Assembly (NCBI RefSeq): GCF_900199725.1
Contig: NZ_LT904904.1
Span: 91,298-155,297, forward strand
Direction of reading: 5' to 3'
Length of the DNA stretch: 64,000 nucleotides
DNA from: Cytobacillus massiliigabonensis
GTDB taxonomy: Bacteria > Bacillota > Bacilli > Bacillales > Cytobacillaceae
The position numbers and the translations under genes are program-made. Of this stretch, positions 1,905 through 56,034 are shown in pieces. The number at the start of each line of letters is the position of its first letter. The stretch's first letter is position 1. The notes beneath the pieces were generated by a model that saw only the letters and a program-made list of their open reading frames with translations, did no database searches and had not been told where the DNA came from.

Positions 1905-2988
1905 GTACTTCTTCTATAAATAATTGGCGATTCTTTTCTAAATGGATAATCTCATCCGTTTGGGTAATTTTCACAAGTGGTCTCGTTGGTGACTTTTCTT
2001 CTATAAAGAGAATTTCTGCTACACGATCATCAGATAATTTTACACTGCTTCCAATTGAAAAGGTCATTATACCTGATCCTATAGCTTGCATTGCAGTAAT
2101 ATCATATTTTCCAAACATATCTTGAAGCATCATCTCTAATACTTTAAACGGTGATTGCTTCCGTCTGTATAATCGGCTGCATGTCATAGCATGAAATGTA
2201 TCAGCAACACCAATGATTTTAGCAAAAATATTAATTTTATTATTTTTCTCTCCTAAAGGATATCCGCTGCCATCTAATCTTTCATGATGCTGTAAAATGC
2301 CAATCTTTGTACTTTCCCTTAAAAGAGAAATATTCTGAACCATTTTATACGAATAGGTTGTATGTTTTTTCATTTCTTCAAATTCCTGTTTTGTTAATGT
2401 AGACTTTTTATTTAAAATAGCTGGTTTAATTTTTGCCATTCCAGCATCAGATAAACATCCCCCAATAGCAAGCTGAACAATGTCACCCTTATTCATTTTA
2501 AGTTTTTTTCCTATAAACGCACTAATAAGTCCCACTGCAACCGCATGTTGATATAAATACTCATCTTGCGTTGATAGGTGGTGCAAGGAGAATAATTCAG
2601 ATGGGGTTACTTCCGACTTTTCTACTAAAGGGATCATGATATTCCTAATCTTTGAAAAATCAATAGGGATACCTGCTTGCCAATTTTTAAATTCCTTCTT
2701 ATAATCTCGGACACCAATTAAAAAGGCATCTTCCAGACTAGCTTCCATTATAGTTGGAACACTTTTTTGCTCAATCCCATCATCATCTAGAATTTCCCTA
2801 GGCTGAAATGGTGAACCATTAACCATCAATTTGTCTACATGAACCTCTCTAATTAAAAAGGCTTTTAATATTCCAATTAATTCATTCGTAATAATTGTCT
2901 TTTTACTAACGATAGGGCGATTTGTCAGACTGTAAATATCCTCCGATAAAATACACCCTTCTAGAAGTTCATTTATATTAACACGCAT
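1897..2988 (-). CDS. HD-GYP-like domain protein with a degenerate HD motif
   Basis: A 363-residue protein. The N-terminal 110 residues contain nothing I recognise. An HD-GYP-type phosphodiesterase domain spans roughly residues 140-320. In known HD-GYP proteins this domain hydrolyses cyclic di-GMP. Here HHERLDGSGYP (the HHE and GYP signatures) is intact and an upstream YQHAVAV histidine is present, but the usual HD pair reads CLSDAGMAK, so the first metal-ligand histidine is replaced by serine. Activity is therefore doubtful and a sensory or binding role is possible. I chose ATG at 2988 because GAGGTG lies 7 nt upstream; a TTG at 3003 overlaps that ribosome binding site. It sits between gyrA and the rrn operon, where related Bacillus species carry a similar gene. 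Confidence 0.85.
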   Translation of the reverse strand: MRVNINELLEGCILSEDIYSLTNRPIVSKKTIITNELIGILKAFLIREVHVDKLMVNGSPFQPREILDDDGIEQKSVPTIMEASLEDAFLIGVRDYKKEFKNWQAGIPIDFSKIRNIMIPLVEKSEVTPSELFSLHHLSTQDEYLYQHAVAVGLISAFIGKKLKMNKGDIVQLAIGGCLSDAGMAKIKPAILNKKSTLTKQEFEEMKKHTTYSYKMVQNISLLRESTKIGILQHHERLDGSGYPLGEKNNKINIFAKIIGVADTFHAMTCSRLYRRKQSPFKVLEMMLQDMFGKYDITAMQAIGSGIMTFSIGSSVKLSDDRVAEILFIEEKSPTRPLVKITQTDEIIHLEKNRQLFIEEVLK

Positions 2989-3042
2989 TTTTTTACACCT
3001 CAAATGTCATGAGTCCTTATTACTATTCTACTCCATTTTAAT

Positions 3043-3074
3043 AAAAAAGAGGAACACTAAATTGTGTTCCTCCT
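3043..3074 (-). terminator. gyrA terminator
   Basis: The minus strand forms GAGGAACAC / GTGTTCCTC around a 6-nt loop followed by six Ts. It starts 9 bases beyond the gyrA stop codon. Confidence 0.85.
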
Positions 3075-3082
3075 CTTTATTA

Positions 3083-5602
3083 TTACTCCTGCTCATTAAC
3101 CTCATCATCTTCAAGGTGTGGATCAGCACTTTCAATTGGCTTTGTTAATTCTTCTTCTGTTTTATCCTCATCTTTTTCAACCTTCGTAACAGTAGCAACA
3201 TATTCATTTTGGCTTTCATCTAAACGAATGAGTCTTACCCCTTGGGTATTACGGCCCATTGTTGAAATATCACTTACTGCCATACGAATAAGGACTCCGC
3301 CAGTTGTAATTAACATTAAATCTTCTTCTCCAGTTACTGCACGCATGGATACAAGATTACCATTCTTCTCAGTTATATTACATGTCTTAATTCCTTTTCC
3401 GCCTCTTCCTTGAATTCGATATTCTTCAGAAGGTGTGCGTTTGCCATAACCATTTTTAGTAACAATTAATATTTGAGAGTTTTCCTCTAAAACTTCCATT
3501 CCGACAACTTCATCATCGCCATTTAAACTAATTCCTTTCACGCCTGTTGCAGTACGCCCCATTGAACGGACATCAGTCTCAGGGAATCGAATAAGCAATC
3601 CATTACTTGTTCCAATAATGATTTCCTTATTGCCATCTGTTAAGCGGACAGAAATTAATTCATCATCTTCTCTTAAATTCAATGCAATTAATCCATTGTT
3701 TCTAATATGAGCGAATGAGCTTAATGGAGAACGTTTGGAAATTCCCATTTTTGTTGTAAAGAATAAGAACCAGTCATCAACAAAATCTTCTACCGGAATG
3801 ATAGCATTTACCCATTCATCCTTCTCAATTCCTAGGAGATTAATGATCGGTATTCCTTTAGCTGTCCTGCTGAATTCAGGAATCTCATACCCTTTCGAAC
3901 GATAAACCTTTCCCTTGTTTGTAAAGAAAAGTATCGTATCGTGGGTACAAGTAGTGATTAAATGCTCGACAAAATCGTCCTCATTCGTTCCCATTCCTTG
4001 AATCCCGCGACCTCCTCGTTTTTGAGAGCGATAGGTCGATACAGGCAGGCGCTTAACATACCCCTTATGAGTCAAAGTGATGACAATATTCTCACGCGGA
4101 ATAAGGTCTTCATCTTCAATTTGCTCAATTCCGCCTGCAACAATTTCCGTGCGGCGCTTATCATTAAATCGTTCCTTAATTTCACTTAATTCTTCACGGA
4201 TAATATCTAGTAGCTTTTCTTCATCTGCTAAAATAGCTTTAAGCTCGCCAATTAGTTTGACTAAGTTAGCATACTCTTCTTCAATTTTTTCACGTTCTAA
4301 TCCAGTCAAACGCTGAAGACGCATATCAAGAATAGCCTGTGCTTGCTTTTCGGATAGATTAAACTTCGTCATCAATCCTTCACGGGCGATATCTGTTGTT
4401 TGAGAGCTGCGGATTAATGCGATGACTTCATCTAAATGATCTAATGCAATACGCAAACCTTCTAGAATGTGAGCACGAGCTTCTGCTTTTCTTAACTCAA
4501 ACTCTGTTCTGCGGCGAATCACAACCTTTTGATGGTTTAAGTAATGAACTAAACATTGCTTTAAGTTTAAAACTTTAGGTTCTCCATCAACTAAGGCAAG
4601 TAAATTAATACCAAAACTTGTTTGTAAAGCTGTTTGCTTATATAAATTATTCAATAAAACATTAGCATTCGCATCTTTACGAACCTCAATAACAATTCTC
4701 ATTCCATCGCGATCTGATTCGTCTCGAAGGTCAGTAATGCCATCAATTTTTTTATCCCTAACAAGCTCAGCAATTCTTTCTATCAATTTCGCTTTGTTCA
4801 CTTGATAAGGAATTTCATTGACAATAATAACTTCCTTGCCGCTTGGCTTTTGCTCAATTTCTACCTTCGCTCTTATAGTAATAGAGCCTCTTCCAGTTTC
4901 ATAAGCTTTACGAATACCGCTGCGCCCCAAAATAATACCTGCAGTTGGAAAATCCGGCCCAGGAATAATATCCATTAACTCTTGAATAGTAATTTCGGGA
5001 TCCTTACTTACTGCTAAGACACCGTCGATTACTTCTCCAAGCTGATGTGGAGGAATATTTGTTGCCATTCCTACTGCAATTCCTGACGTTCCATTAACTA
5101 ATAAATTAGGAAAACGTGCAGGAAGAACAACAGGTTCTTTTTCTTCTCCATCATAGTTATCTTGATAATCAATCGTATCTTTATTAATATCTCGCAGAAG
5201 CTCCATTGAAATTTTAGACATCCGAGCTTCTGTATAACGCATTGCCGCAGCATCATCCCCATCAACAGAACCAAAGTTTCCATGTCCATCTACGAGCATA
5301 TAGCGATAGTTAAAATCCTGTGCCATCCGGACCATTGTTTCATATACCGCTGAATCGCCATGAGGATGGTATTTACCAATAACATCCCCGACAATACGAG
5401 CGGACTTTTTAAATGGTTTATCTGAATGCATTCCAAGGTCATGCATTGAATATAAGATTCGACGGTGAACCGGCTTTAAACCGTCACGAACATCAGGTAA
5501 TGCACGCGATACAATTACACTCATCGCATAATCAAGAAATGACTCACGCATTTCTGTGCTTATATTTCTTTCTTTTATCTGAGACTTCGGAGTTTCGGCC
5601 AT
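3083..5602 (-). CDS. gyrA: DNA gyrase subunit A
   Basis: An 839-residue GyrA, the normal Bacillus length. It is the breakage-rejoining subunit of gyrase (A2B2), which introduces negative supercoils. The active-site tyrosine is Tyr123 ([10 protein letters not shown]). The quinolone-resistance region reads [10 protein letters not shown] with Ser84 and Glu88, the usual sensitive-type residues. The C-terminal half carries repeated beta-pinwheel blades, including a GyrA-box-like QKRGGRGI near residue 530, and ends in an acidic tail. ATG at 5602 is preceded by AAGGGAGG. It lies 110 bp downstream of gyrB; a hairpin between them suggests partial termination and possibly a separate promoter. Confidence 0.98.
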
Positions 5603-9121: not shown

Positions 9122-9207
9122 AGACGCTACATCCTTTTAGCTTTTTAAAGCTTCAGTCAATTGCTTTATTTAATTAAAACTAAACTTTTCACTTCAGAAA
9201 AAGTTTA

Positions 9208-9420
9208 TTAAATAATTTCAAAGGAACCATAATTAGGAATATCAATTTTATCCCCTACACGAAGCTTTCTTCCTCTTCTTTGATCCTGCTCTCCATTAAC
9301 AAATACCTCATATTCACTTAAAAACCACTTCGCCATTCCACCTGTTTGGATTACATCCGAAGCCTTTAAGAATTGCCCTAATGTTATATATTCAGAATCA
9401 ATTTTAATTTTCGTCATCAT
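9208..9420 (-). CDS. yaaA: S4 domain-containing protein YaaA
   Basis: A 70-residue protein made almost entirely of one S4 RNA-binding domain (VNGEQDQRRGRKLRVGDKI). In Bacillus it is always found between dnaN and recF; B. subtilis YaaA has been linked to ribosome assembly. Two consecutive ATG codons (9420 and 9417) follow GAGTGA, and either could start translation. A strong terminator separates it from dnaN, so it probably heads the recF-remB operon. Confidence 0.93.
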   Translation of the reverse strand: MMTKIKIDSEYITLGQFLKASDVIQTGGMAKWFLSEYEVFVNGEQDQRRGRKLRVGDKIDIPNYGSFEII

Positions 9421-9506
9421 TTCACTCTTTCTTCATCTAAAAATAGCCTCTAATACTTTATTCTACTAAATAACTGATTAATATTCAAAGGTAACCTTAT
9501 TAAATT

Positions 9507-9539
9507 AAAAAGCTACCCGCAACACACGAGCAGCTTTTT
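9507..9539 (-). terminator. dnaN terminator
   Basis: The minus strand forms a 13-bp stem (AAAAAGCTGCTCG with CGGGTAGCTTTTT, including G-U pairs) closed by a 7-nt loop and ending in T5. It starts 9 nt after the dnaN stop and ends the dnaA-dnaN operon before yaaA. Confidence 0.85.
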
Positions 9540-9547
9540 AATTTATC

Positions 9548-10684
9548 TTAATATGTTCGAACAGGCAAAATTAATTGAAGAATTGAATCATCATTGATTG
9601 GCCGTATGACAAATGGTCTCATCGCACCTGTAAAACTTATCGTAATTTCTGATCCTTCAAGTGTCTTTAATGCATCCATCATAAATTTAGCACTAAAAGA
9701 TATTTTTAATTCTTCTCCTTCAATCGATTGGCTTTGAAGTTCTTCAACTACATTACCAATTTCAGGTGTATTTGAAGAAATTTCAATGATTCCATCTTGA
9801 ATAGTTGTAAATTTAACGACATTATTTCTTCCTTCTCTGGCAAGCAGCGAAGCACGGTCAATCGCATGTAAGAAATCCTTTGTATTGACGACAATATTCG
9901 TCTTGCTTTCATTCGGAATTAATTTTGAAGTATCAGGATAATTGCCCTCTAATAATCTTGAGAAAAATAAGAGATTTTTTGCTTTAAATAAAACTTGGTT
10001 TTCTGTAATAACAATGTCAATTAAATCATTGTTGTCATCTAGAATTTTACTTAGCTCACCTAAGCTTTTCCCTGGAATTACCACATTATAGCTTTCATCC
10101 GCTTCTGTCTCAATTTTTGCTTTTCTCAATGCTAGTCGATGGCTATCTGTTGCAACACAGGTTAATTCACCATTTCCAACCTTCCAGTTTACACCTGTCA
10201 AGATGGGGCGTGTTTCTGAGGTGGACACTGAGAATACCGTTTGTCTAATCATAGCCTTTAATAAATCTGTTGGGATTTTAAAAATATTTTCTTCTTTAAT
10301 TTGCGGCAAATGTGGATATTCATCAGCATCTAAGCCGTTCAGTTTAAATTCAGATTTTCCTGAACGGATAACAGTTTGCAATTGATTTTCAACATGAATC
10401 TCAACTGTATCTGTAGGCAATTTTTTTACAATCTCACTAAAGAATTTGGCTTGAAGAACAATGGCTCCTGGTTGTTTAATTTCTGCAATTTCATCTCCAG
10501 CTTCTTCTTTAGGGATAAAAGATTCAATTGAAATGTCTGAATCACTGCCCGTTAATGTTACTCCATCAGTAGTCGCAACAATTTTGATTCCCGTTAAAAT
10601 AGGGATTGTTGTTCTGCTTGTCACAGCTTTCATAACATCTTGAACACTTTGAACTAAACGATCCCGTTGGATTATGAATCTCAT
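9548..10684 (-). CDS. dnaN: DNA polymerase III sliding clamp (beta subunit)
   Basis: A 378-residue beta clamp with three tandem clamp domains (about residues 1-125, 126-250 and 251-378) and the conserved C-terminus LILPVRTY. Dimers encircle DNA and tether polymerases and other clamp-binding proteins. Length and sequence match B. subtilis DnaN. It is second in the dnaA-dnaN operon; the 175-bp gap to dnaA is part of oriC. Confidence 0.98.
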   Translation of the reverse strand: MRFIIQRDRLVQSVQDVMKAVTSRTTIPILTGIKIVATTDGVTLTGSDSDISIESFIPKEEAGDEIAEIKQPGAIVLQAKFFSEIVKKLPTDTVEIHVENQLQTVIRSGKSEFKLNGLDADEYPHLPQIKEENIFKIPTDLLKAMIRQTVFSVSTSETRPILTGVNWKVGNGELTCVATDSHRLALRKAKIETEADESYNVVIPGKSLGELSKILDDNNDLIDIVITENQVLFKAKNLLFFSRLLEGNYPDTSKLIPNESKTNIVVNTKDFLHAIDRASLLAREGRNNVVKFTTIQDGIIEISSNTPEIGNVVEELQSQSIEGEELKISFSAKFMMDALKTLEGSEITISFTGAMRPFVIRPINDDSILQLILPVRTY

Positions 10685-10859
10685 TTTTTTAATCCTCCGA
10701 TATAATTTTTTATGGTGTATAGTTATATATTTTCTTTTAAAAAAATAATAGAAGTACTAGTAGGTCTTGTTGATATGTGGATAACTCTGTTTATTGAATG
10801 GAAACACAGCCTATCCACATGTGGACAGACTGTGTGTAAGCGGAATAGAGTTATTCACA
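10685..10859. other. oriC: oriC right half: dnaA-dnaN intergenic with DnaA boxes, DnaA-trio and AT-rich unwinding region
   Basis: This gap holds DnaA boxes at 10776-10784 (TGTGGATAA, perfect), 10811-10819 (CTATCCACA), 10820-10828 (TGTGGACAG) and 10851-10859 (TTATTCACA, touching the dnaA stop). Next to the perfect box, 10746-10763 reads as six in-phase triplets TAA TAG AAG TAC TAG TAG. This resembles the DnaA-trio element that in B. subtilis guides DnaA onto single strands. Beyond it, 10705-10750 is almost pure A+T. In B. subtilis the duplex melts on this side of dnaA. The box positions are seen; the unwinding role is inferred. Confidence 0.85.
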
Positions 10860-12206
10860 TTATACTTTTAGAATTTCATGAATTTCTCTCAGCTGTTTCT
10901 GGAATTGAGTATCTGTTTGGACTAGCTTAGAAATTTTCTCATGGGCATGAATAACAGTTGTATGATCCCTTCCTCCGAATTCTTCACCAATCTTAGGCAG
11001 TGAAAAATCCGTTAATTCCCTTGATAGATACATAGCAATTTGTCGTGGGAAAGCAACTGATTTCGTTCTCTTCTTTGCCTTAAAGTCCTCAAGCTTTACA
11101 TTATAATGCTCTCCTACAACTCTCTGAATATCATGAATGGTAATTACTTTCGGTTTGGAGCTAGGAATGATATCTTTTAGCGCTTCAGCAGCTAAATCAG
11201 CATTTATGTCTTTATTTATTAAGGAGGAATAAGCTACTACTCTTATAAGTGCTCCTTCTAATTCACGGATATTTGAATCAATTTGATTAGCAATATAAAG
11301 CATCACTTCATTTGGAATATCCAGACCTTCCGCTTTAGCCTTTTTTCGAAGAATAGCAATTCTTGTTTCAAGATCTGGAGGAGTAATGTCGGTAATAAGA
11401 CCCCATTCAAATCGAGAACGAAGCCGATCTTCAAGTGTTGGAATTTCCTTTGGAGGCCGGTCACTTGAAATGACAATTTGCTTGCTTTCTTCGTGCAATG
11501 TATTAAAAGTATGGAAAAATTCCTCTTGTGTAGATTCTTTTCCCGCTAAAAACTGAATATCATCAATTAGAAGTACATCTACTTTACGGTATTTATTTCG
11601 GAAATCAATCGCTTTATTATCACGAATGGAGTTAATAAATTCGTTTGTGAATTTTTCCGATGATAAATAAACAACCTTTGCAGACGGGTTATGATCTAAA
11701 ACGTAATGTCCGATTGCGTGCATTAAATGTGTCTTTCCTAAACCTACTCCTCCATATATAAATAAAGGATTGTAAGCTTTTGCTGGTGCTTCAGCGACAG
11801 CAAGAGATGCAGCATGTGCAAATCTATTTCCTGAACCTATAACAAAAGTATCAAACGTATTCTTTTGATTAAGCATAATGGAAGGCAGTTCTGGCTGCTC
11901 CTCTTCTTTTTTCCCTTTCTTTGGCGGATTAGGAAAATCCATATCATTTTCAGCCTGATTTTGCGGGATTATAAACTTTACTCCTAATTCTTCTCCAGTT
12001 ATTTCATAGACAATTTCTGAGATCAGTTTGGAGTAACGCTCTTCAAGCCAATCACGGGCAAAATCATTTGGAACTGTAATGACTAAAGTATCGCCTTGAA
12101 GGGCGTGAGCTTTTGTTGATTTTAACCATGTCTCATAACTTGGTTTGCTTATTTTTTTCTCGATCTTAGCAAGAGCATTATTCCAAAGATCCGATATATT
12201 CTCCAA
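10860..12206 (-). CDS. dnaA: Chromosomal replication initiator DnaA
   Basis: A 448-residue AAA+ initiator. Domain I covers residues 1 to about 80, and a short lysine/glutamate-rich domain II linker follows. Domain III has Walker [10 protein letters not shown] and Walker [10 protein letters not shown]. Domain IV has the DnaA signature [15 protein letters not shown] for DnaA-box binding. The start is TTG at 12206, with AGGAGGG about 7 nt upstream; an ATG nearby is out of frame. DnaA boxes lie both upstream and downstream, so autoregulation is expected. Transcription is leftward, first in dnaA-dnaN. Confidence 0.98.
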
Positions 12207-21036: not shown

Positions 21037-21226
21037 TTTTACATATCTACATTTTTCCTTCTCCATATTTTTAACAAAAAGAATATTCTCTATCCTTTTT
21101 CATGTTAAAATAGATTACGTGATTGTCATTTTTCGATAATGGCAGATTCTCCATTTCTCAAACGTTGAAATTTTTCACATATATGCTTTTAATAACCTTA
21201 ATTAGAAGATGAAGGTAGGTGATATC

Positions 21227-21988
21227 GTGGGCAAAGTTATTGCCATTGCGAATCAAAAGGGCGGAGTTGGCAAAACAACTACTTCAGTAAATCTTGGTGC
21301 ATGTTTGGCATACATAGGCAAGAAGGTCCTGGTCGTTGATATTGATCCGCAAGGAAATGCAACGAGCGGAGTTGGGATTGAAAAGGCAGATGTTGAACAA
21401 TGTATTTATGATGTGCTAGTAGATGATGTGGAAGCCTCTAAAGTAATTATGCCAACTTCTGTTGAAAATCTATATGCAATTCCTGCAACCATTCAGTTAG
21501 CAGGAGCAGAAATAGAGTTAGTACCGACGATTTCTAGAGAAGTACGATTAAAAAGGGCATTGGAAGAGATTAAGGAAGACTATGATTATATCATCATTGA
21601 CTGTCCTCCCTCATTAGGTTTGCTTACACTAAACTCATTGACTGCATCAGACGCAGTTATAATCCCTGTTCAGTGCGAATATTATGCATTGGAAGGATTA
21701 AGTCAGCTATTAAATACTGTCCGTCTCGTTCAAAAACACTTAAATCATGAACTGAAAATTGAGGGTGTTTTGTTAACCATGCTTGATGCACGGACGAATT
21801 TAGGATTACAAGTCATTGAAGAAGTGAAAAAATATTTCCAAGATAAAGTGTATAAAACGATTATTCCTCGAAATATTCGTCTAAGTGAAGCACCAAGCCA
21901 TGGTGAGCCAATTATTACGTATGATCCTAAATCCCGTGGAGCAGAAGTATATATTGATTTGGCAAAGGAAGTGGTTTCGAATGGCTAA
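21227..21988 (+). CDS. soj: Chromosome partitioning ATPase Soj (ParA)
   Basis: A 253-residue deviant Walker-type ATPase. The Walker A motif is KGGVGKTTT with the signature lysine, followed by DIDPQGNAT and DCPPSLG. Soj acts with Spo0J-parS in origin segregation and regulates DnaA. GTG at 21227 with AGGTG 5 nt upstream gives MGKVIAIANQ, matching B. subtilis; an ATG at 21209 would add six residues and overlap the ribosome binding site. The end overlaps spo0J by 8 bp. Confidence 0.96.
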   Translation: MGKVIAIANQKGGVGKTTTSVNLGACLAYIGKKVLVVDIDPQGNATSGVGIEKADVEQCIYDVLVDDVEASKVIMPTSVENLYAIPATIQLAGAEIELVPTISREVRLKRALEEIKEDYDYIIIDCPPSLGLLTLNSLTASDAVIIPVQCEYYALEGLSQLLNTVRLVQKHLNHELKIEGVLLTMLDARTNLGLQVIEEVKKYFQDKVYKTIIPRNIRLSEAPSHGEPIITYDPKSRGAEVYIDLAKEVVSNG

Positions 21989-22823
21989 AGGCTTAGGAAA
22001 AGGACTAAATGCTTTTTTTACAAACATGGAAACCGTGAAGGAAGAAACGGTTCAAGAAGTTCGAACGAAAGAGCTGCGGCCCAATCCTTATCAGCCACGG
22101 AAAGTATTTGACAAGGAAGCAATTGAAGAGCTAAAGCAATCAATTATTGAACATGGCATTCTTCAGCCGATCATTGTACGCAAAAGCATTAAAGGCTATG
22201 AAATTGTTGTGGGTGAAAGACGCTTCCGAGCAGCAAAGGAAGCGAAGCTCGAAACTGTTCCTGTGGTTGTCAGAGAGTTAAACGAACAGCAAATGATGGA
22301 GCTTGCTGTCTTAGAAAACCTACAGCGCGAGGATTTATCGCCTATTGAAGAAGGAACTGCTTATCAGCTTTTAATGGAAAAGCTGAAGCTAACCCAAGAA
22401 GAACTGGCAAAGCGTCTTGGGAAAAGCAGACCTCATATCGCCAACCATATTCGATTATTATCCCTACCTCCGAGAGTGCAGGCGCTTATTTCCAATGGGG
22501 AAATTTCCATGGGGCATGGCAGAGCACTTTTAGGCTTAAGAAACAAGGATAAGCTCCAAGCAGTTGTAGAAAAAACAATAAAAGATCACCTAAATGTTCG
22601 CCAGCTTGAACAGCTTATTCAACAGTTGAATGATGTTCCACGTGAAACAAAAAAGCCGGTACAACAAAAAGATATTTTTATTAAAGAACGGGAGTCCTCA
22701 TTACGAGATCGATTTGGAACAACTGTGACAATTAAGCAATCAAAGAATAAAGGGAAAATTGAAATAGAATTCTTTTCAAAGGAAGATTTAGAAAGAATTA
22801 TAGAACTTTTAGAGAAAAAGTAG
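21981..22823 (+). CDS. spo0J: Chromosome partitioning protein Spo0J (ParB)
   Basis: A 280-residue ParB CTPase that loads at parS, spreads as a sliding clamp and recruits SMC/condensin. It starts MAKGLGKGLNAFF. The CTP-binding motifs are GERRFRAAKEA and ENLQREDLSPIEE, the helix-turn-helix is TQEELAKRLGKSRPHIANHI, and a C-terminal dimerisation domain follows. ATG at 21981 is inside the last codons of soj, with AAAGGAAG upstream. The gene contains its own parS site at 22634. Length matches B. subtilis. Confidence 0.97.
   Translation: MAKGLGKGLNAFFTNMETVKEETVQEVRTKELRPNPYQPRKVFDKEAIEELKQSIIEHGILQPIIVRKSIKGYEIVVGERRFRAAKEAKLETVPVVVRELNEQQMMELAVLENLQREDLSPIEEGTAYQLLMEKLKLTQEELAKRLGKSRPHIANHIRLLSLPPRVQALISNGEISMGHGRALLGLRNKDKLQAVVEKTIKDHLNVRQLEQLIQQLNDVPRETKKPVQQKDIFIKERESSLRDRFGTTVTIKQSKNKGKIEIEFFSKEDLERIIELLEKK
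22634..22649. promoter_or_regulatory. parS: parS site inside spo0J
   Basis: TGTTCCACGTGAAACA matches the Bacillus parS consensus at all positions. B. subtilis also has a parS within spo0J. Confidence 0.95.
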
Positions 22824-40353: not shown

Positions 40354-42177
40354 ATGAAAAAAGTAGGCTTTTTCCGTTCGATTCACCTTAAATTTGTTAT
40401 TATATATGTCCTTTTAATCTTGATTGCTATGCAAATTATTGGCGTTTACTTTGTACGGCAATTAGAGTTTACGTTGAAGGATAATTTTAAAACAACCATT
40501 CAAGACCGTGTGAAATTGCTTGCGTATTATGTCGAGGAACAAATGACGAAGGATCGTCTGACTGATGAGGAGACTACCCTTGAAGACGATGTCTATAAAT
40601 TATTGAGAGATTTTTACTCGCCAGATATTACGGAAGTACAGGTCATTGACGATTCACTGAAGATTCTTGGGACATCCGATCCGGATAATCAAGGCGTTGT
40701 GACACAAAGGACAACAGATACCCTTATAAGGATGACGCTTGCAACCGCTCAGAAATCGAGCGAGGAACGGATAGATGGTTCGGGAAATCGCATCTGGGTA
40801 TTAGTTACACCGATTAAGCATAAAGGCGAAGTAAAAGGTGCTATTTATTTAGTTGCCAAAATAGAAAATGTCTTTCAGCAAATGAGGCAAATTAATAATA
40901 TATTTATTACTGGTACAGCTATTGCGCTTGCAATAACTGCAGTATTAGGTGTTCTTTTGGCACAAACAATTACAAGGCCAATGTCAGATATGAGAAGACA
41001 GGCACTTGCGATGACAAAAGGGAATTTTTCACGAAAAGTTAAGGTTTATGGATATGATGAAATTGGTCAGCTTGCCATGACATTTAATAATTTAACGAAA
41101 AAGCTCCAGGAGGCACAGGCAACAACTGAAGGGGAAAGGCGAAAGCTTTCTTCTGTTCTCTCTTATATGACGGATGGCGTGATTGCGACTGATCGGAAGG
41201 GGCGTGTCATTTTAATAAATGAACCCGCGGCAGAAATGCTGAATGTTTCACGTGAAACAGTTTTATCCTCTCCAATCGTTCCACTTCTTGGTCTGGAGGA
41301 AGACTATACCTTTGATGAGCTGCTTGCAGAACGGGATTCAGTCATTTTAGATTACAGTGAACCTTCAAAAACGTTAATTTTACGGGCAAATTTCTCTGTT
41401 ATTCAAAAGGAAACTGGATTTGTAAACGGCCTTATTACTGTGCTTCATGATATTACAGAGCAGGAAAAAATTGAGATGGAGCGTCGGGAATTCGTTGCAA
41501 ATGTTTCTCATGAATTGAGAACACCACTGACGACGATGAGAAGCTATTTAGAAGCGCTTGCAGATGGTGCATGGCAGGATAAAGAAATTGCACCGAATTT
41601 TTTAGAAGTAACACAAAATGAGACAGAGCGGATGATTCGTCTTGTGAATGACTTGCTGCAATTATCAAAAATGGACAGCAAGGATTACCGTCTGACAAAA
41701 GAGTGGATCGATCTTATTTCCTTCTATAACCGGATTATCGATCGATTTGAATTAACGAAGCATCAAAATGTGATTTTTGACCGAAGACTGCCTAATCAGG
41801 CTGCATTTGTTGAGATTGATGCGGATAAGCTTACACAAGTGCTGGATAACATCATATCCAATGCACTGAAGTACTCTCCAGAAGGCGGAAAGGTTACATT
41901 CCGTGTCGAAGAAAAGCTGGATATGATGATTGTAAGTGTTTCTGATCAAGGAGTAGGAATACCAAAAGAAAATATTGATAAAATATTTGACCGATTTTAT
42001 CGAGTAGACAAAGCTAGAACGAGAAAGCTGGGTGGCACAGGTCTTGGCCTTGCTATTGCTAAGGAAATGGTTGAAGCACATGGCGGTGAAATATGGGCAA
42101 TGAGTAAAGAGGGAAAAGGAACAACGATCTTTTTCAGTCTGCCTTTTGCTCGTACTGAAGAGGATGATTGGGAATGA
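40354..42177 (+). CDS. walK: Sensor histidine kinase WalK
   Basis: A 607-residue kinase. Two membrane segments (about 12-33 and 184-204) flank an extracellular PAS-like domain. HAMP, a cytoplasmic PAS domain (about 260-365), HisKA (NVSHELRTPLTTM, phospho-acceptor His) and an ATPase domain (NIISNALKYSPEGG, DQGVGIP, GGTGLGLAI) follow. It phosphorylates WalR. ATG at 40354 has AAGGAG upstream. A perfect parS lies within the gene at 41244. The stop overlaps walH by 4 bp. Confidence 0.97.
   Translation: MKKVGFFRSIHLKFVIIYVLLILIAMQIIGVYFVRQLEFTLKDNFKTTIQDRVKLLAYYVEEQMTKDRLTDEETTLEDDVYKLLRDFYSPDITEVQVIDDSLKILGTSDPDNQGVVTQRTTDTLIRMTLATAQKSSEERIDGSGNRIWVLVTPIKHKGEVKGAIYLVAKIENVFQQMRQINNIFITGTAIALAITAVLGVLLAQTITRPMSDMRRQALAMTKGNFSRKVKVYGYDEIGQLAMTFNNLTKKLQEAQATTEGERRKLSSVLSYMTDGVIATDRKGRVILINEPAAEMLNVSRETVLSSPIVPLLGLEEDYTFDELLAERDSVILDYSEPSKTLILRANFSVIQKETGFVNGLITVLHDITEQEKIEMERREFVANVSHELRTPLTTMRSYLEALADGAWQDKEIAPNFLEVTQNETERMIRLVNDLLQLSKMDSKDYRLTKEWIDLISFYNRIIDRFELTKHQNVIFDRRLPNQAAFVEIDADKLTQVLDNIISNALKYSPEGGKVTFRVEEKLDMMIVSVSDQGVGIPKENIDKIFDRFYRVDKARTRKLGGTGLGLAIAKEMVEAHGGEIWAMSKEGKGTTIFFSLPFARTEEDDWE
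41244..41259. promoter_or_regulatory. parS: parS site inside walK
   Basis: TGTTTCACGTGAAACA is the ideal Bacillus parS palindrome. It is used as coding sequence (N-V-S-R-E-T) in the PAS region of walK, about 29 kb from oriC. Confidence 0.93.
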
Positions 42178-47155: not shown

Positions 47156-47635
47156 GTGAATATCTCAATAATAACGGTTGGCAAGCTAAAAGAAAAATAT
47201 TTAAAGCAAGGAATCGATGAATATTTAAAAAGATTATCAGCATACGCAAAAATGGAAATCATCGAGGTTCCAGATGAAAAAGCCCCAGAAGAACTAAGCG
47301 AAACAGAAATGCTTCAAGTGAAACAAAAGGAAGGCGAACGGATCCTATCAAAGATCCATCCAGATGCACATGTCATTGCTCTTGCAATTGAGGGAAAAAT
47401 GAAAACATCAGAGGAGCTGGCTGATGGGCTAGATAAGCTTGCTACATATGGCAAAAGCAAAGTTACATTTGTGATCGGCGGATCGCTTGGATTGAGCTCT
47501 GAGGTCTTGCAGCGTGCCAATGAGAAACTGAGTTTTTCGAAGATGACGTTTCCTCATCAGTTAATGCGTTTGATACTAGTTGAGCAGGTTTATCGGGCGT
47601 TTCGGATTTTGCGGGGGGAACCGTATCATAAGTAA
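47156..47635 (+). CDS. rlmH: 23S rRNA (pseudouridine(1915)-N3)-methyltransferase RlmH
   Basis: A 159-residue SPOUT methyltransferase that modifies pseudouridine 1915 of 23S rRNA. The SAM-binding knot motif is [10 protein letters not shown] near residue 103, and the C-terminus ILRGEPYHK is fully conserved. The start is GTG at 47156, with GTGAGGATG upstream. It is the last clearly core gene before the accessory region. Confidence 0.96.
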
Positions 47636-47766: not shown

Positions 47767-48687
47767 CTACTCCCACCAATGCTTTAGTTCTGTGAAGTCT
47801 ACATCCCATAATTTTATGTTACCAGTAATAGCTATGGTTATTTCTTTCGTCTCGTTAAATAGTGGGATTTCTAATGGCATTTCCATTGTTCCTTGTTCTA
47901 TTAAGTATTTCTCATCTATTTGAATTCTTACCCTATCATCCGTATATATGGTTACTTTACCCTTAAATTCCTCAGAATCTGGAATGCCAAGGTTTAGATA
48001 AAAAATTAGCTCCTCTTTCCCTTCAACATTATAAGTATAGATTTGGCTAGTATTCCTATCATTACTGTACAAGTTGAATTGGGGTTCTATTGTATCGCCA
48101 GTTATAGTGAAGTTTGGAATATCTTTCGTTAGTGGCTTCTTCCCCATTGTTTCCTCGATATACTGTAAAGGCTGTTTAGAACTTACGCGCTTATCTAAAA
48201 TTTCAGAGACGCACATTACACAAACTAACAGTAGAGTAGCTGTTGAGCAAGAAACAATGAGCTTCATACAAGTCAATTTTGGTGTGAAACCAACTTTGTA
48301 GACAACATAGCCTATTATTGCACCTATTGTATTTGAAATAATATCGTCAGCATCAAAGGCTCCGAGATATGTTAAAACTTGGAGTATTTCTAATCCAAGA
48401 ATTACGATAATAAACCAGCTTAAAAATTTTCCAAAGTTAACTTGTTTTAATAAAGGAAACAGGATACCAAAGGGGATGAATGCCGCTATATTTCCTAAGT
48501 CGTACAACCAAGAAAACCGGAAACTAGGGAATTTTAAAGGGACGCTTGATGGAATAATTAGAAATTCATAACCTGCATCCATGTAATTACTTCTATGTTC
48601 TAGGCGATTAAAACCTAAAAACATAAAATATAAAGTAAGAGCCGTATATATAATTGTAATCGTGGTAATCAAATGTTGCTTTTTCAT
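47767..48687 (-). CDS. VanZ-like family membrane protein
   Basis: A 306-residue protein. The N-terminal half is a VanZ-like domain with about five membrane segments, including FIPFGILFPLL and the FDADDIISNTIGAIIGY motif typical of VanZ/phosphotransbutyrylase-like proteins. The C-terminal 140 residues are hydrophilic and look extracytoplasmic. VanZ itself gives low-level teicoplanin resistance in enterococci; chromosomal relatives are of unknown role. ATG at 48687 has GGAGGAAGG upstream. It points away from the ParM-like operon. Confidence 0.85.
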   Translation of the reverse strand: MKKQHLITTITIIYTALTLYFMFLGFNRLEHRSNYMDAGYEFLIIPSSVPLKFPSFRFSWLYDLGNIAAFIPFGILFPLLKQVNFGKFLSWFIIVILGLEILQVLTYLGAFDADDIISNTIGAIIGYVVYKVGFTPKLTCMKLIVSCSTATLLLVCVMCVSEILDKRVSSKQPLQYIEETMGKKPLTKDIPNFTITGDTIEPQFNLYSNDRNTSQIYTYNVEGKEELIFYLNLGIPDSEEFKGKVTIYTDDRVRIQIDEKYLIEQGTMEMPLEIPLFNETKEITIAITGNIKLWDVDFTELKHWWE

Positions 48688-48980: not shown

Positions 48981-49169
48981 GTATACAAAATTGTTTACAT
49001 GTCTACATTTTGTAATCAGATTGTATGCAAAAGCGTTTACAAGTAAACAACCCCGTATACATCCTATAGCGGCAAGATGTATACGGGTTTGTTGCTAAAG
49101 ATTACGGAAATGTCTACAAATAGCCATAGTTTACGAAGTGTTTACAGTTGTATATCTTTTGGGTATAGC
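48981..49169 (+). promoter_or_regulatory. Centromere-like GTNTACA repeat array and promoter of the ParM-like operon
   Basis: Heptamers related to GTNTACA start at 48981, 48993, 49001, 49012, 49023, 49035, 49055, 49079, 49112, 49129 and 49140, mostly 11-12 bp apart, so they face one side of the helix. They include GTTTACAAGTAAAC (49035-49048) and a CCCGTATACATC / GATGTATACGGG inverted repeat (49052-49085). TTTACA (49141-49146), a 17-bp spacer and TATAGC (49164-49169) form a promoter whose -35 is itself a repeat. This mirrors the parC/operator layout of actin-type partition loci. The stretch 48688-48960 shows nothing I can name. Confidence 0.65.
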
Positions 49170-49240
49170 TCATTGTGGAATCTAGTAATCTCTTATAGCC
49201 TTTTTATAGTAAAGAAATAAATAAAAAGGATTGATTAAAG

Positions 49241-50410
49241 ATGAACTCTAGAATTGCAGCTGTAGATGTTGGTAATGACTCCATTAAGGCCATTTTTGGT
49301 GAATTAGAGTACGAATTAAATATTCCTAATATTGTAGGAATAGACACAGAAGATCGTCCTGTGATTGGAATAGAAGAATTAAATAATAAAAATCCGTTAG
49401 AAGGAATACATATTAAGGTTCACTCCCCTGCATTGAAAGACAACAATGCCATCTACCGTGTAGGGCATTTGGCAACAAAAAGTGACAATGCAACAGAGCT
49501 AGATCCAGGAAGTGCTAAATCCGAAGAAGATCAAACATTGATCATGCTTTTTGCCACTCTAGCATTAGATGCCGTAAATGAGGAGAATAGCAATACTTTC
49601 CCACGAGTAAAAAATATTATCGATGCCAATTATACACTTGGAACTGGCCTCCCACTACGTGAAGTAAAGGAAGGGAAGGACGCTGGATACCGTTCCAAAT
49701 TGGTTGGTTCCGTCCATCAGGTGGAATTCCTTGTTACTCCTAAATATCAAGGTCTAAAAGTGAATATTAAGTTTAATGAAGTGAAGATTTATCCAGAAGG
49801 GTTTGCTGCTTATATTAATCTTGTCATGGACAACCAGCTAAAAATCATTAATAAAGATTTAATTGATAAAAGAATAATCATTCAGGACATAGGGGGACTA
49901 TCGACAGATATTGCTGTCATTAAGAATCGAAATGTTGATGATGATAAGGCACAAGGATTTAATCTAGGTGTATCGGAATCATTAGAGGCTATTAGAGAAG
50001 AAATCAGATCCAAACATGCCATCGAATTAGATAGCCGTCGTGATGTTGTCGAAATTATCACGAGAAAAAATGACCGGAATCATATTATGGTGAAGGGAAG
50101 TCGGACAAGTGTCCATGATATTACGGATCGGATCTTACTTGAACTAGCAAAAAAACAATATCGTCTATTACGAAATGTATGGCAGAAAAATTCACAAACA
50201 GAAATCTGCTATTTTGTTGGTGGGGGAGCGAATGTTTTAAAAGAATATATTAAAACATTGAATAATAATCTAGATGGGTATAATATTGATTTCTTTGAAG
50301 ATGAGAAAGAGAGTATTTGGATGATGGCGAATGCTTACTATAAGCTTATTACTGATTTTGTGAGGAAGAATGAAAAGTCTAAGCCATCCCAAGAACCTGT
50401 AAAGAAATAA
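49241..50410 (+). CDS. ParM/StbA-family actin-like partition ATPase
   Basis: A 389-residue actin-fold protein resembling plasmid ParM, Alp7A and AlfA. Phosphate-1 motif AAVDVGNDSIKAIFG lies at residues 5-19, phosphate-2 QDIGGLSTDIAVI near 223, and the adenosine motif YFVGGGANVLKEYI near 330. Such proteins polymerise with ATP and push or pull plasmid DNA bound by an adaptor. ATG at 49241 has AAAGGA upstream. A repeat array precedes it and a ribbon-helix-helix protein follows, so the cassette is complete. Its presence 37 kb from oriC suggests an integrated plasmid remnant or recruitment to a chromosomal role. It could also come from a phage. Confidence 0.9.
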   Translation: MNSRIAAVDVGNDSIKAIFGELEYELNIPNIVGIDTEDRPVIGIEELNNKNPLEGIHIKVHSPALKDNNAIYRVGHLATKSDNATELDPGSAKSEEDQTLIMLFATLALDAVNEENSNTFPRVKNIIDANYTLGTGLPLREVKEGKDAGYRSKLVGSVHQVEFLVTPKYQGLKVNIKFNEVKIYPEGFAAYINLVMDNQLKIINKDLIDKRIIIQDIGGLSTDIAVIKNRNVDDDKAQGFNLGVSESLEAIREEIRSKHAIELDSRRDVVEIITRKNDRNHIMVKGSRTSVHDITDRILLELAKKQYRLLRNVWQKNSQTEICYFVGGGANVLKEYIKTLNNNLDGYNIDFFEDEKESIWMMANAYYKLITDFVRKNEKSKPSQEPVKK

Positions 50411-50422
50411 TAGGGTGATGAT

Positions 50423-51034
50423 ATGAAAAGCTCTAGTTCAAAGGAGATTAAGAGAGGGCAAGCCATTTCATTTCGTATCCCTTCAGATACCCCTGATCAT
50501 CTATTAGGGCATTTACAAAGGCTAAAGGAATTAGAAAGAAGGAATTTTTCGAGTAAGATTGCCGAGTTTGTGTTACAAGGGGTTGGACAATCCTTTTCGA
50601 AGGAACGGGAAACGATTACGGTTCCTCTTCCTCATAAATTAAGTAAGTCACAACGAGATTGGTTAAAACATGAGCATTCGGAGGCCGTATTGGGTTCGAT
50701 TGTTTACCAGCTTTTAACGGATCCCATTCGTACAACTGCCTTGCTTGCATCGTTAAATAGTAATTCTCTAGATATTAATGAGGCCTTATATTTGCAAGAA
50801 GAATTGCCGAATGAAGAGGTACCTGATACGGAAGCATCCTTAGCGAGTGACTATTTAAGTACTTTTGAGAAAAAAGCTGACGCCGAAGATTTAAGTACTA
50901 TGGATGATTTAGACACGTTTGATTGGAAAAAAGTAACAAAAGATAAATCGATAACAGCAGAAGAGCAACAGGCTGACATGGAAAATGATCTAGACAGTCT
51001 GTTAGGGGATTTTCTTAATAAAATGAATAAGTAG
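50423..51034 (+). CDS. Ribbon-helix-helix adaptor (ParR/Alp7R-like) of the ParM-like operon
   Basis: A 203-residue protein, 12 bp after the ParM-like gene, with GGGTGATG as ribosome binding site. Residues 10-58 (GQAISFRIP strand, then two helices ending FSSKIAEFVLQGV) look like a ribbon-helix-helix DNA-binding domain. The middle 60-110 is basic and aromatic. The C-terminal 90 residues are strongly acidic (EELPNEEVPDTEAS, DMENDLDSLLGDFL), as expected for a tail that contacts the actin-like filament. I recognise no named family beyond the fold. The likely role is binding the upstream GTNTACA array, linking it to filaments and repressing the promoter. Confidence 0.75.
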   Translation: MKSSSSKEIKRGQAISFRIPSDTPDHLLGHLQRLKELERRNFSSKIAEFVLQGVGQSFSKERETITVPLPHKLSKSQRDWLKHEHSEAVLGSIVYQLLTDPIRTTALLASLNSNSLDINEALYLQEELPNEEVPDTEASLASDYLSTFEKKADAEDLSTMDDLDTFDWKKVTKDKSITAEEQQADMENDLDSLLGDFLNKMNK

Positions 51035-51154
51035 CATGATAGAAAAGGGGAAAATTGCAAATACAAAATAAACCTCATTAACAACTATAACGGGGAAACA
51101 GTACCATAAGTAACGGCAAAAAATTGGGGGAATAGGGCCAGAGGTCTGTGAGAG

Positions 51155-53117: not shown

Positions 53118-53579
53118 TTGGAGAAATTAACCTATTATATAGATAAAGGAAATGGCCATTATGAGCCGTTCTATGAATATACGATTCCGAATGTTGGCGA
53201 GGACGAATTTTATGCCAGACAGCTATGTACGTATTTTATTATGAGAGGTACCCAATACGAGCTTACTTCTAATGAGATGAATGGAGAAGAGGACATTTTG
53301 GTACTTAAAGAAATAGGAAGGAATCTGCCGGGAGAAAAGGAAATAAGTTATCGCGGCAATGGATTGCATATCGAGTTTCGCAGCCCTGAAGAAAGTGAAA
53401 ATTTTAAACTGTTCGCCAGAATTTCCTGTCATACTCACTTTGATGTCCTTCGCTTTCTCTTAAAGGATGTTGTGGATGTTCCAGGTATTGGACAAATGTG
53501 TGTAACCTCTACGGAGATTGATGAAGATCGGGGAGTGTATGTACTATACGTCAAGGACTTAGGAGAGAAAAAGGATTGA
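53118..53579 (+). CDS. Unrecognised soluble protein of the ATP-grasp cluster
   Basis: A 153-residue acidic protein without membrane segments. It reads like a beta-rich small domain (LTYYIDKGNGHYEPFYEY, YRGNGLHIEFRSPEESENF), with four scattered cysteines. I do not recognise a family. TTG at 53118 has GGGGAAG upstream. Its stop overlaps the next gene's start as TTGA, so it is translationally coupled to the ATP-grasp enzyme and could be its substrate, regulator or partner. Confidence 0.75.
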   Translation: MEKLTYYIDKGNGHYEPFYEYTIPNVGEDEFYARQLCTYFIMRGTQYELTSNEMNGEEDILVLKEIGRNLPGEKEISYRGNGLHIEFRSPEESENFKLFARISCHTHFDVLRFLLKDVVDVPGIGQMCVTSTEIDEDRGVYVLYVKDLGEKKD

Positions 53580-54808
53580 GCGGGCAAGCGTATCATGCAA
53601 AACGGCAGCAGTTTTACGGGAAAATAGAAGGCTTTTGGGCCAATCTTTATGGAGAGGAATATGCACTTTATGATATAAAACTTTTACATCAAGAAGATGT
53701 TTCTCAAATTAGGCTGATAAGTCAGCGTATTGGATTCATTTTTATAAAAACAGCCTCCCTGCTTCGAAGGGCCCCTGATGAAACCCTTTTGGAAATGGGT
53801 TTCCCAAAGGAAACACTCACATTTATTCGGCTTAAAACACTTCCATCCGAGAGTGTTATCTCCCGGCTTGACCTTATTCCATATGGTGATAGTTTTAAAT
53901 GCATTGAAATCAATGCTGATACCCCTACATTTATTAAAGAGCTTTTTCACATAAATGGTTTGGTATGCAGAGAATTCGGAGTGGAGAATCCGAATGAGGG
54001 AATGGATCGGCTTTTACAAAAAGCAGTTCGTGAAATCATATTCCAATGCACAGATAAGGAATCCCCTCATATTGTTTTTACTGCTCACGAGGATAACATC
54101 GAAGATCGCGAAACCGTGCTCTATCTTCAGAATTTTATACCATCTAAATTTACCCCGCTCCATAAGCTGCAAATTCATAAAGGTGTGGGTCTTTTTGATG
54201 AGGATGGAATGAAAATAGATATCCTTTATCGGCAAACCTTCCCGATAGAGAGTTTGATAGCAGATGTAGACGAGGAAGGAAATCCAATCGGACTATGGTT
54301 ATTAGAACTTGTTGAAGAGGGGAAGCTTTCTGTCATTAATCCCCCTTCAGCATTTTTATTACAAAATAAAGCGGTTCAGGCTGTTATTTGGGGATTGCAT
54401 GAAGAGCATCATCCTTTTTTTACAGATGAAGAGCATATGTGGATAGATGAATACTTTCTTCCGACCTATTTTGAATCTGAATATTTTTTACAAAATGGTC
54501 TTTCTTATGTAAAAAAACCTGCCTTTGGGAGAGAAGGGGACACGGTAAAAATATTTAATAAGGATGGTCAATTAATATACAAGGATGGTCAGAGTTCGTA
54601 TTCAGAATACGTCCCTGTTTATCAGAAATATGTCGAGCATCCAACCATAACTTTTAATTGTGAAAAGGGAAAACAGGATGGCCAGCTTTTGCTTGGAAGC
54701 TTTCTGCTGAACGGAAAACCGGCAGCACTTGGATATAGGGTAGGAGGTACTATTACCAATAACCTTTCTTATTACTTACCTGTGGGGCTCTTAAAAGGGG
54801 AGAAATAG
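53576..54808 (+). CDS. Glutathionylspermidine synthase-like ATP-grasp enzyme (YjfC family)
   Basis: A 410-residue enzyme of the GspS C-terminal ATP-grasp family. Diagnostic segments are the PYGDSFKCIEINADTPT region near 100, KKPAFGREGDTVKIF near 318 (the KP..GREG nucleotide-binding loop) and LGSFLLNGKPAALGYR near 377, with the Mg-binding Asn in TITNNLSYY. The amidase half of true glutathionylspermidine synthase is absent. Bacillus lacks glutathionylspermidine, so the ligated substrate is unknown; peptide or polyamine ligation is the family expectation. The start is TTG at 53576, coupled to the gene before it. Confidence 0.88.
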   Translation: MSGQAYHAKRQQFYGKIEGFWANLYGEEYALYDIKLLHQEDVSQIRLISQRIGFIFIKTASLLRRAPDETLLEMGFPKETLTFIRLKTLPSESVISRLDLIPYGDSFKCIEINADTPTFIKELFHINGLVCREFGVENPNEGMDRLLQKAVREIIFQCTDKESPHIVFTAHEDNIEDRETVLYLQNFIPSKFTPLHKLQIHKGVGLFDEDGMKIDILYRQTFPIESLIADVDEEGNPIGLWLLELVEEGKLSVINPPSAFLLQNKAVQAVIWGLHEEHHPFFTDEEHMWIDEYFLPTYFESEYFLQNGLSYVKKPAFGREGDTVKIFNKDGQLIYKDGQSSYSEYVPVYQKYVEHPTITFNCEKGKQDGQLLLGSFLLNGKPAALGYRVGGTITNNLSYYLPVGLLKGEK

Positions 54809-55950: not shown

Positions 55951-56034
55951 AACCTGATGCGCCTCGATGAACTGTACCATAAATAAATGAGTTTTTTAGT
56001 CAAATGCCTCACCTTAAGGTTGGGGGATCAGGTT
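55951..56034. repeat. Short inverted-repeat element
   Basis: AACCTGAT (55951-55958) and ATCAGGTT (56027-56034) bound 84 bp containing ACCATAAATAAATGAGTTTT + TTAGTCAA. A close variant of that inner segment recurs at 62257-62287. Just upstream, a strong AAAGGAGG precedes ATG with only eight codons (55915-55941), which looks like the remnant of a lost gene. Confidence 0.5.

What the first reader, a model, noticed from the sequence alone, without database searches (positions are those of the whole stretch)
48981..51034. Complete plasmid-type actin partition cassette in an oriC-proximal chromosomal position
A ParM/Alp7A-like ATPase is followed by a ribbon-helix-helix protein with an acidic tail and preceded by a helically phased GTNTACA array. 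One repeat of the array doubles as the promoter -35 (TTTACA-17-TATAGC). This is the full layout of a type II partition locus (centromere/operator, motor, adaptor), yet it lies among chromosomal genes 37 kb from oriC in a genome that also has soj-spo0J. It may be a plasmid fossil kept for its own sake, or an actin-based helper for origin segregation.
Basis: partly seen in the sequence, partly recalled or inferred. Interest (0 to 1): 0.8.

Follow-up and report, generated by a model that had tools for sequence, protein, structure and literature searches.

The report
Conserved chromosomal actin partition cassette
A plasmid-style DNA-segregation kit (an actin-like motor, an adaptor protein and a repeat array that looks like a centromere) is kept as a chromosomal locus near the replication origin in many Bacillus-like bacteria, which suggests a job on the chromosome itself, though no function has yet been tested.

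Summary
The cassette is real: an Alp7A-like actin (49241-50410), an adaptor with an acidic tail (50423-51034) and an upstream GTNTAC array. It is not a fossil. Orthologues (at least 77% identical, no internal stops) occur in 64 searched genomes of 17 families; the next best hits there are 43%. The adaptor follows parM in 144 of 144 loci. ParM is as conserved as DnaA (81.6% against 81.2%).

parM lies 30-281 kb from dnaA, on the rlmH side and transcribed away from oriC, in 43 of 43 genomes with both on one contig, including 18 of 18 with chromosome-scale contigs besides this one. It lies beyond rlmH on the same strand in 45 of 45. In 21 genomes the contig breaks leave the place open.

Chromosomal ParMs were reported in 2025, so this is a new variant of a known kind. 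Best reading: a resident ParMRC-type system acting in cis on origin-proximal DNA. Main rival: the place follows from linkage to rlmH, an insertion hot spot with SCC-like repeats, one of which abuts parR here. The ribbon-helix-helix fold was not confirmed and the proposed -10 is not conserved. Filaments, DNA binding and segregation are untested.

The parts
48981..49146 (.). Centromere/operator-like array: eight exact GTNTACA plus further GTNTAC/GTANAC half-sites; contains a dyad of two GTATAC sites 24 bp apart (about 49055-49084)
   Evidence: 8 of the window's 30 matches here; array upstream of parM in relatives; 24-bp pair at 180-233 bases before the start in 67 of 89 non-redundant loci
49173..49200 (+). 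Conserved block between array and parM; candidate promoter or leader, function not shown
   Evidence: alignment of 89 upstream regions
49241..50410 (+). parM: Alp7A-like actin ATPase, 389 aa
   Evidence: Alp7A_like_C 2.1e-40, ALP_N 5.6e-9; orthologues; invariant columns
50423..51034 (+). parR-like adaptor, 203 aa: conserved N-terminal part of about 127 residues, variable acidic linker, motif DDLDxFxW, C-terminal motif D-x-LLG[D/G]FL-xx-MNK
   Evidence: (listed plasmid relatives match only within residues 1-105)
47156..47635 (+). rlmH: parM lies beyond it on the same strand in 45 of 45 genomes with both on one contig
   Evidence: family; positions
47767..48687 (-). VanZ-like gene between rlmH and the array; among 80 named loci only L032 (C. 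praedii) has it beside the cassette
47618..47635 (+). 3' end of rlmH, core of an att-like direct repeat
51096..51113 (+). Copy of the rlmH end (15 of 18), preceded by AACCTCAT-type sequence, just after parR
   Evidence: 18 of 18 in L032 at 11856
55969..55986 (+). Third copy of the rlmH end (15 of 18)
10860..12206 (-). dnaA, reference point for oriC
   Evidence: ORF; TIGR00362, 6.3e-188; position
21209..21988 (+). soj (ParA-family ATPase)
   Evidence: ORF; ParA-type families up to 1.3e-33, below their curated cut-offs; the name soj rests on place and recall
21885..22823 (+). spo0J (ParB), ORF as listed; its true start is probably later
   Evidence: (TIGR00180 7.1e-64)
41244..41259 (.). parS-like palindrome inside walK; another at 22634-22649
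   Evidence: shuffles give 0.15 matches with up to 2 mismatches; consensus recalled

Best explanation
This is a chromosome-resident ParMRC-type system of the Alp7A branch, maintained by selection. Shown here: three parts kept together, orthology across 17 families, strong sequence constraint, and a recurrent origin-proximal place and direction. Inferred: the adaptor binds the GTNTAC array (and so also controls its own operon), its conserved C-terminal motif caps or tracks ParM filaments, and filament growth pushes apart or positions the newly copied origin-proximal region next to the ParABS system, soon after that region is replicated.
For: Orthologues in 42 of 61 near genomes and 24 of 398 Bacilli genomes (64 distinct, 17 families), none with an internal stop; no hit between 43% and 77% identity in those two searches. 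Adaptor in 110 of 110 loci and 34 of 34. Upstream GTNTAC count 2-15 in 109 loci against a mean of 0.42 in 1400 random windows of the same loci. Mean pairwise identity ParM 81.6%, DnaA 81.2% (820 pairs of 41 genomes; Mantel r 0.77, 0 of 2000 permutations as high). 43 of 43 same-contig genomes (13 families) have parM 30-281 kb on the rlmH side of dnaA, pointing away; free of contig-length bias are 18 chromosome-scale contigs, 18 of 18 at 51-234 kb, plus this genome at 37 kb. 10 of 11 further genomes of named loci agree, one of them a repeat. Control: a window neighbour gene has homologues in 9 of 42 other genomes, and 0 of the 7 on the dnaA contig lie within 300 kb. No second array was found in the genome.
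Against: No binding, filament or segregation data. The place may be inherited linkage to rlmH rather than selection for oriC. In 21 of 64 genomes dnaA and parM are on different contigs; there the dnaA contig runs outward up to 250 kb (G419), 195 kb (G156) and 179 kb (G428) without meeting parM, so larger distances or other places are not excluded. L079 departs on its scaffold. RacA-like genes, a second control, also lie about 208-221 kb from dnaA in three genomes of one genus. Some ParM placements disagree with DnaA (G044, G225/G325, G156), so transfer is likely. 374 of 398 drawn Bacilli lack the orthologue. It does not replace RacA: both occur together. The RHH fold is unconfirmed.
Confidence: 0.45

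Rival explanations
1. The cassette is a resident or module of the rlmH insertion hot spot. Its constant place and direction come from rlmH linkage or att-type integration, and any partition activity serves an rlmH island or its excised circle, not the chromosome as such.
For: Copies of the rlmH 3' end recur in the window at 51096, just after parR, and at 55969 (0.075 hits per window for shuffled tails). In L032 the copy after parR is 18 of 18. In L035 a 2.8-kb unit between two copies holds, among ORFs of 110 aa or more, only parM and parR. The repeats carry AACCTCAT/ATGAGGTT flanks like those recalled for SCC elements. A degenerate core gave 26 hits in 30 loci against 0-9 for eight shuffled cores. 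parM lies beyond rlmH, same strand, in 45 of 45 plus 10 of 10 genomes. An ICE family with active partition is known (PMC4489591, title and start of abstract in a listing).
Against: Only 5 of 114 loci have a core copy 1.7-3.2 kb after the parM start. A strict right-end pattern follows parR in 2 of 144 loci; of the 24 downstream stretches printed, most by eye show an ordinary terminator instead. None of the ten flanking proteins scanned is a recombinase. ParM is as conserved as DnaA and correlates with it.
Confidence: 0.22
2. ParM has been recruited to a non-segregation task (cell shape, positioning of a protein or of the spore septum). The array is only the operon's operator, and the origin-proximal place is an ancestral accident.
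For: The chromosomal adaptors (190-208 aa) have a long acidic tail with two conserved short motifs, while four more distant adaptors that I read are 142-159 aa and end differently; this suggests extra partners. An actin-like family that regulates cell morphology exists (PMC12645912, title and start of abstract in a listing).
Against: The array looks longer than an operator needs (median 13 half-sites in 89 loci) and keeps an 11-bp period. Motor, adaptor and array occur together in the loci read.
Confidence: 0.22
3. It acts on incoming plasmids: by capturing or destabilising plasmids with the same centromere, or by partitioning them in trans.
For: Plasmid relatives with an adaptor-like gene close to parM exist, at up to 43.4% ParM identity among those listed.
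Against: No plasmid relative is close by sequence (74 of 74 records below 60%), and phages hold only two weak hits.
Confidence: 0.06
4. Plasmid fossil: a remnant of an integrated plasmid with no present function.
For: Its kind is typical of plasmids.
Against: 64 orthologues without internal stops in 17 families and conservation equal to DnaA.
Confidence: 0.02

Closest known systems
Chromosome-encoded ParMR systems (cParMR) of Desulfitobacterium, Clostridium botulinum, Moorella and Bacillus tropicus (Ali et al. 2025, PMC12270681; abstract, sections 4, 5, 13 and passages read)
   Same: ParM-type actin and an adjacent adaptor on a chromosome, conserved within a taxon; Cb-cParR binds its chromosomal parC; Bt-cParM is said to be conserved on several Bacillus chromosomes; ParABS present too.
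   Different: The passages read mention no origin-proximal placement, no rlmH linkage and no adaptor tail of this kind; tables and supplements were not read. Whether Bt-cParM1 or 2 is this orthologue could not be tested.
Alp7A/Alp7R of Bacillus subtilis plasmid pLS20 (recalled) and the Alp7A-type systems on Bacillus/Paenibacillus plasmids found here
   Same: Alp7A_like_C domain (tested for the window's ParM), adaptor-like gene next to parM.
   Different: Listed plasmid ParMs are at most 43.4% identical; listed plasmid adaptors match only within residues 1-105.
Salactin of Halobacterium (PMC10746226, passages read)
   Same: Chromosomally encoded dynamic actin proposed to partition chromosomal DNA.
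   Different: Archaeal; no adaptor is named (the term was searched, 0 hits) and its DNA handle is described as unverified.
SCC elements of staphylococci (recalled; SCC papers seen only as listings)
   Same: Direct repeats of the rlmH 3' end with AACC-type flanks lie beyond rlmH, one just after parR.
   Different: No Ccr recombinase among the few proteins scanned; repeats do not bound the cassette in most loci.

Membership tests
Type II (ParMRC) partition system | Actin-like ATPase motor | tested here: met
   by family and motif only
Type II (ParMRC) partition system | Adaptor gene in the same operon | tested here: met
   gene directly downstream in 144 of 144 loci
Type II (ParMRC) partition system | Adaptor with ribbon-helix-helix DNA-binding fold | tested here: inconclusive
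   no family or fold match; poor model
Type II (ParMRC) partition system | Centromere of direct repeats next to the operon | tested here: met
   by sequence only; binding untested
Type II (ParMRC) partition system | Nucleotide-dependent filaments; stabilises the DNA that carries it | not testable with these tools
   -
Type II (ParMRC) partition system | Carried on a low-copy plasmid | tested here: not met
   dnaA on the same contig; no plasmid orthologue. Chromosomal members are reported in PMC12270681, so this limits the label 'plasmid-type', not the mechanism
Alp7A family | Alp7A_like_C domain above the curated cut-off | tested here: met
   138.5 bits against 22
Chromosomal cParMR (PMC12270681) | Orthology to Bt-cParM1 or Bt-cParM2 | not testable with these tools
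   no tool here fetches those chromosomal proteins by accession
SCC-type element | rlmH-end direct repeats bounding the unit | tested here: inconclusive
   present in the window, L032 and L035, absent next to most cassettes
SCC-type element | Ccr serine recombinase in the unit | tested here: inconclusive
   none of ten flanking proteins scanned; no whole-genome search made

The most novel reading that the evidence does not exclude
A second, actin-driven chromosome segregation system that works beside ParABS in Bacillaceae: a centromere held on the origin-proximal left arm is pushed by a dedicated actin. Many of the same genomes carry a second chromosomal ParM opposite the origin (0.48-0.50 of the replicon from dnaA in 7 of 8 same-genus genomes measured), so origin and terminus may each have their own actin handle.
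Probability: 0.3. Interest if true: 0.92.

Novelty: new variant of a known kind. Interest (0 to 1): 0.7.

Why it matters
ParMRC systems are textbook plasmid machines. Chromosomal ones were reported in 2025 with function unknown (PMC12270681). Here is one with clear signs of long-term chromosomal service in Bacillus relatives, with a defined candidate centromere, a recurrent place near oriC and an adaptor with a tail of its own. That makes the question 'does any bacterium use an actin to segregate its chromosome?' directly testable by one deletion, one relocation and one imaging experiment.

Tried and rejected
RacA replacement: rejected; own genome and several ParM-bearing genomes also have RacA-like genes, below the family's curated cut-off. 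A second array elsewhere in the genome: none (pattern hits 24 against 33 for the reversed control). Structure prediction: both models too poor to use; fold search without a credible match. RNA families near the locus: none. A covarying hairpin in the array: reduced to a conserved 24-bp dyad, because beyond the sites two positions stand out from column make-up (0.45 and 0.55 paired against 0.28 and 0.30). dif site in the 6-7 kb around 14 copies of the second ParM or its kin: none with the recalled motif. Promoter typing by pattern: not decisive. 'Phage origin': two weak hits only.

Rows dropped before counts: 21 of 64 genomes had dnaA and parM on different contigs and do not enter the 43; 19 of 64 had rlmH and parM on different contigs and do not enter the 45. 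G030 enters the 43 only if the contig end is taken to join dnaA. In the neighbour-gene control 2 of 9 were on other contigs than dnaA. L059 is the same genome as G018, and other loci among the 144 also repeat a genome. L001 was left out of the locus sets; one locus with a short upstream was left out of the array counts (109 of 110). Tree and identity counts used 41 of the 64 genomes.

Full report
WHAT IS THERE. The window is G000:C8:91298-155297, an eight-contig genome of 5.23 Mb. Its nearest named relatives in the listings are Cytobacillus praedii and C. solani. At 49241-50410 lies a 389-residue actin of the Alp7A type (Alp7A_like_C 2.1e-40, ALP_N 5.6e-9). Twelve bases after its stop codon a 203-residue protein begins. 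Upstream, 48981-49146 holds eight exact GTNTACA, of 30 in the 64 kb. dnaA is 37.0 kb away. A ParA-family gene in the soj place and spo0J are open, and parS-like palindromes lie at 22634 and 41244.

ORTHOLOGUES. ParM was found at 79-100% identity in 42 of 61 near genomes, 34 of them among the 36 of the same genus, and at 77-100% in 24 of 398 Bacilli genomes. Two genomes are in both sets, so 64 genomes of 17 families carry it, own genome included. None of these reading frames has a stop inside. In these two searches the next best hits are 43% and below. Among 72,556 plasmid records 74 have a relative, all below 60% and the best listed 43.4%; phages have two weak ones. In 80 of 80 named loci the adaptor follows ParM, while neighbours differ and rlmH is seen within the held flank (up to 10 kb) in only three.

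CONSTRAINT. Over 820 pairs of 41 of these genomes ParM is 81.6% and DnaA 81.2% identical on average, with Mantel r 0.77 (0 of 2000 permutations as high). The two trees (no support test made) agree largely within genera, but G044, G225/G325 and G156 are placed differently, so some horizontal transfer is likely.

PLACE. Of the 64 genomes, 43 have dnaA and ParM on one contig. Thirty-six give the distance directly: 30.5-280.2 kb, median 94 kb. Seven need the contig length: G001 114, G012 161, G019 156, G029 155, G042 234, G229 51 and G030 91 kb (length; assumes that the contig end joins dnaA). In 43 of 43 the gene lies on the rlmH side of dnaA and is transcribed away from oriC; these are 13 families. 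Short contigs can show only short distances, so the fair subset is the chromosome-scale contigs: 18 of 18 at 51-234 kb, besides the window's own contig (37 kb). In the other 21 genomes the place is open: the dnaA contig runs outward past rlmH without meeting parM for at least 250 kb in G419, 195 kb in G156 and 179 kb in G428 (positions). Eleven further handles reached through named loci were tested. Ten agree at 38-216 kb, one of them (L059) being G018 again. In L079 (Bacillus sp. EB01) dnaA lies far off on the scaffold, but rlmH and parM are 47 kb apart. parM lies beyond rlmH on the same strand, 1.6-166 kb away, in 45 of 45 genomes with both on one contig and in 10 of 10 further ones.

CONTROLS FOR PLACE. 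The glutathionylspermidine-synthase-like gene at 53576-54808 was sought in the same 43 genomes. Nine of the other 42 have a homologue. Seven are on the dnaA contig, at 0.53-2.05 Mb. RacA-like genes in seven genomes (with dnaA; below the curated cut-off) lie at about 208, 213 and 221 kb (one genus), 374 kb, 828 kb, 1.8 Mb and 2.05 Mb. So constancy of place is unusual. But linkage to rlmH, itself origin-proximal, may be the whole reason.

ARRAY. In 109 loci the 420 bases upstream of parM hold 2-15 GTNTAC, against a mean of 0.42 in 1400 random windows of the same loci (maximum 13; random windows could overlap the array). In 34 further loci there are 5-16 half-sites in either direction. In 89 non-redundant loci there is a median of 13 half-sites (2-18); successive spacings of 12, 8, 11, 24 and 21 are commonest, and the distances peak at a period of 11 bp. 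A pair of sites 24 bp apart, at 180-233 bases before the start, occurs in 67 of 89. No other array was found in the genome. The repeat used in the proposed -35 is conserved, but its -10 is not. A block at about 49173-49200 is better conserved.

ADAPTOR. Chromosomal adaptors are 190-208 residues long (110 loci). Residues 1-127 are well conserved. The rest is acidic and variable except for D[DE]LDxFxW (loose pattern in 87 of 144) and the C-terminal D-x-LLG[D/G]FL-xx-MNK (loose pattern in 132 of 144). Plasmid adaptors listed align only within the first 105 residues, and 0 of 22 records cover 80% of the query. The adaptors beside four more distant ParMs that I read (L146, L147, L148, L151) are 142-159 residues and end differently, so a C-terminal extension is not unique, but this tail is not shared by them. 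I infer that the end motif binds ParM. The ribbon-helix-helix fold is not shown. The ParM model was also poor, so its fold rests on the Pfam matches.

RLMH REPEATS. The last 18 bases of rlmH recur at 51096 and 55969 (15 of 18 each), against 0.075 hits per window for shuffled tails. In L032 the copy after parR is perfect. In L035 there are seven copies besides rlmH itself; the unit from 9185 to 12002 holds the array and, among ORFs of 110 residues or more, only parM and parR. The copies carry AACCTCAT / ATGAGGTT flanks. From memory this is the plan of SCC attachment sites. Across 114 loci (1.83 Mb) a degenerate core gave 44 hits, 38 on the parM strand (30 loci: 26 real against 0-9 for eight shuffled cores), but only 5 loci have one shortly after parR. 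A strict right-end pattern follows parR in 2 of 144, and by eye most of the 24 downstream stretches printed show an ordinary terminator. So the neighbourhood is an SCC-like hot spot and the cassette may at times have moved with it, but in general it is not an att-bounded unit.

LITERATURE. Eight searches gave one paper about chromosome-encoded ParMs, PMC12270681 (abstract, sections 4, 5, 13 and passages read). It reports filament-forming chromosomal ParMs and says that Bt-cParM is conserved on Bacillus chromosomes. I saw no statement there on origin-proximal placement; its tables and supplements were not read. Salactin (PMC10746226, passages) is a precedent for a chromosomal actin thought to partition DNA.

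VERDICT. A real, deeply conserved chromosomal ParMRC-type locus; a new variant of a known kind. The mechanism (adaptor on array, filament capping, movement of origin-proximal DNA) is inferred. Confidence is 0.45 for cis action on origin-proximal chromosomal DNA, with rlmH-island service and non-segregation recruitment at 0.22 each.

Noticed in passing
L150 (G001) 2815-3999 and lower table: A second chromosomal ParM type (27-33% identical to this one; ALP_N and a weak Alp7A_like_C match for the G001 copy) in 23 of 36 same-genus genomes, not in G000; not shown to be one orthologous group. In 7 of 8 measured it lies 0.48-0.50 of the replicon from dnaA, i.e. near the terminus (G019: 0.09). In G001 it sits beside a CotZ-like coat gene. 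Orthologues of the G001 copy at 75-79% in 4 of 398 Bacilli genomes; G307 at 0.42.
   Followed up: partly
window 47618, 51096, 55969; L032 8244, 11856, 15558; L035 5384-19252; L060: Direct repeats of the rlmH 3' end with AACCTCAT/ATGAGGTT flanks beyond rlmH in Bacillaceae, several following single genes, resembling SCC attachment sites.
   Followed up: partly
G015:C6:52158-57406 and G023:C14:17527-22780: Two rlmH genes 4-5 kb apart in each of two genomes.
   Followed up: no
L116, downstream of parR: A second GTNTAC-rich stretch after parR in G045, perhaps a bipartite centromere.
   Followed up: no
L146 (G009:C19:43209-50306): A second parM-parR pair (ParM 41% identical) on another contig of a genome that also has the chromosomal one, with ORFs nearby that by eye look transposase-like.
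   Followed up: partly
window 49052-49087: 15-pair stem within the array, reported as terminator-like on the minus strand; coincides with the conserved 24-bp dyad.
   Followed up: partly
L074, L071, L104: Records titled Chryseobacterium, Paenibacillus bovis and Bacillus subtilis carry this cassette at 86-89% identity; the titles may be mislabelled.
   Followed up: no
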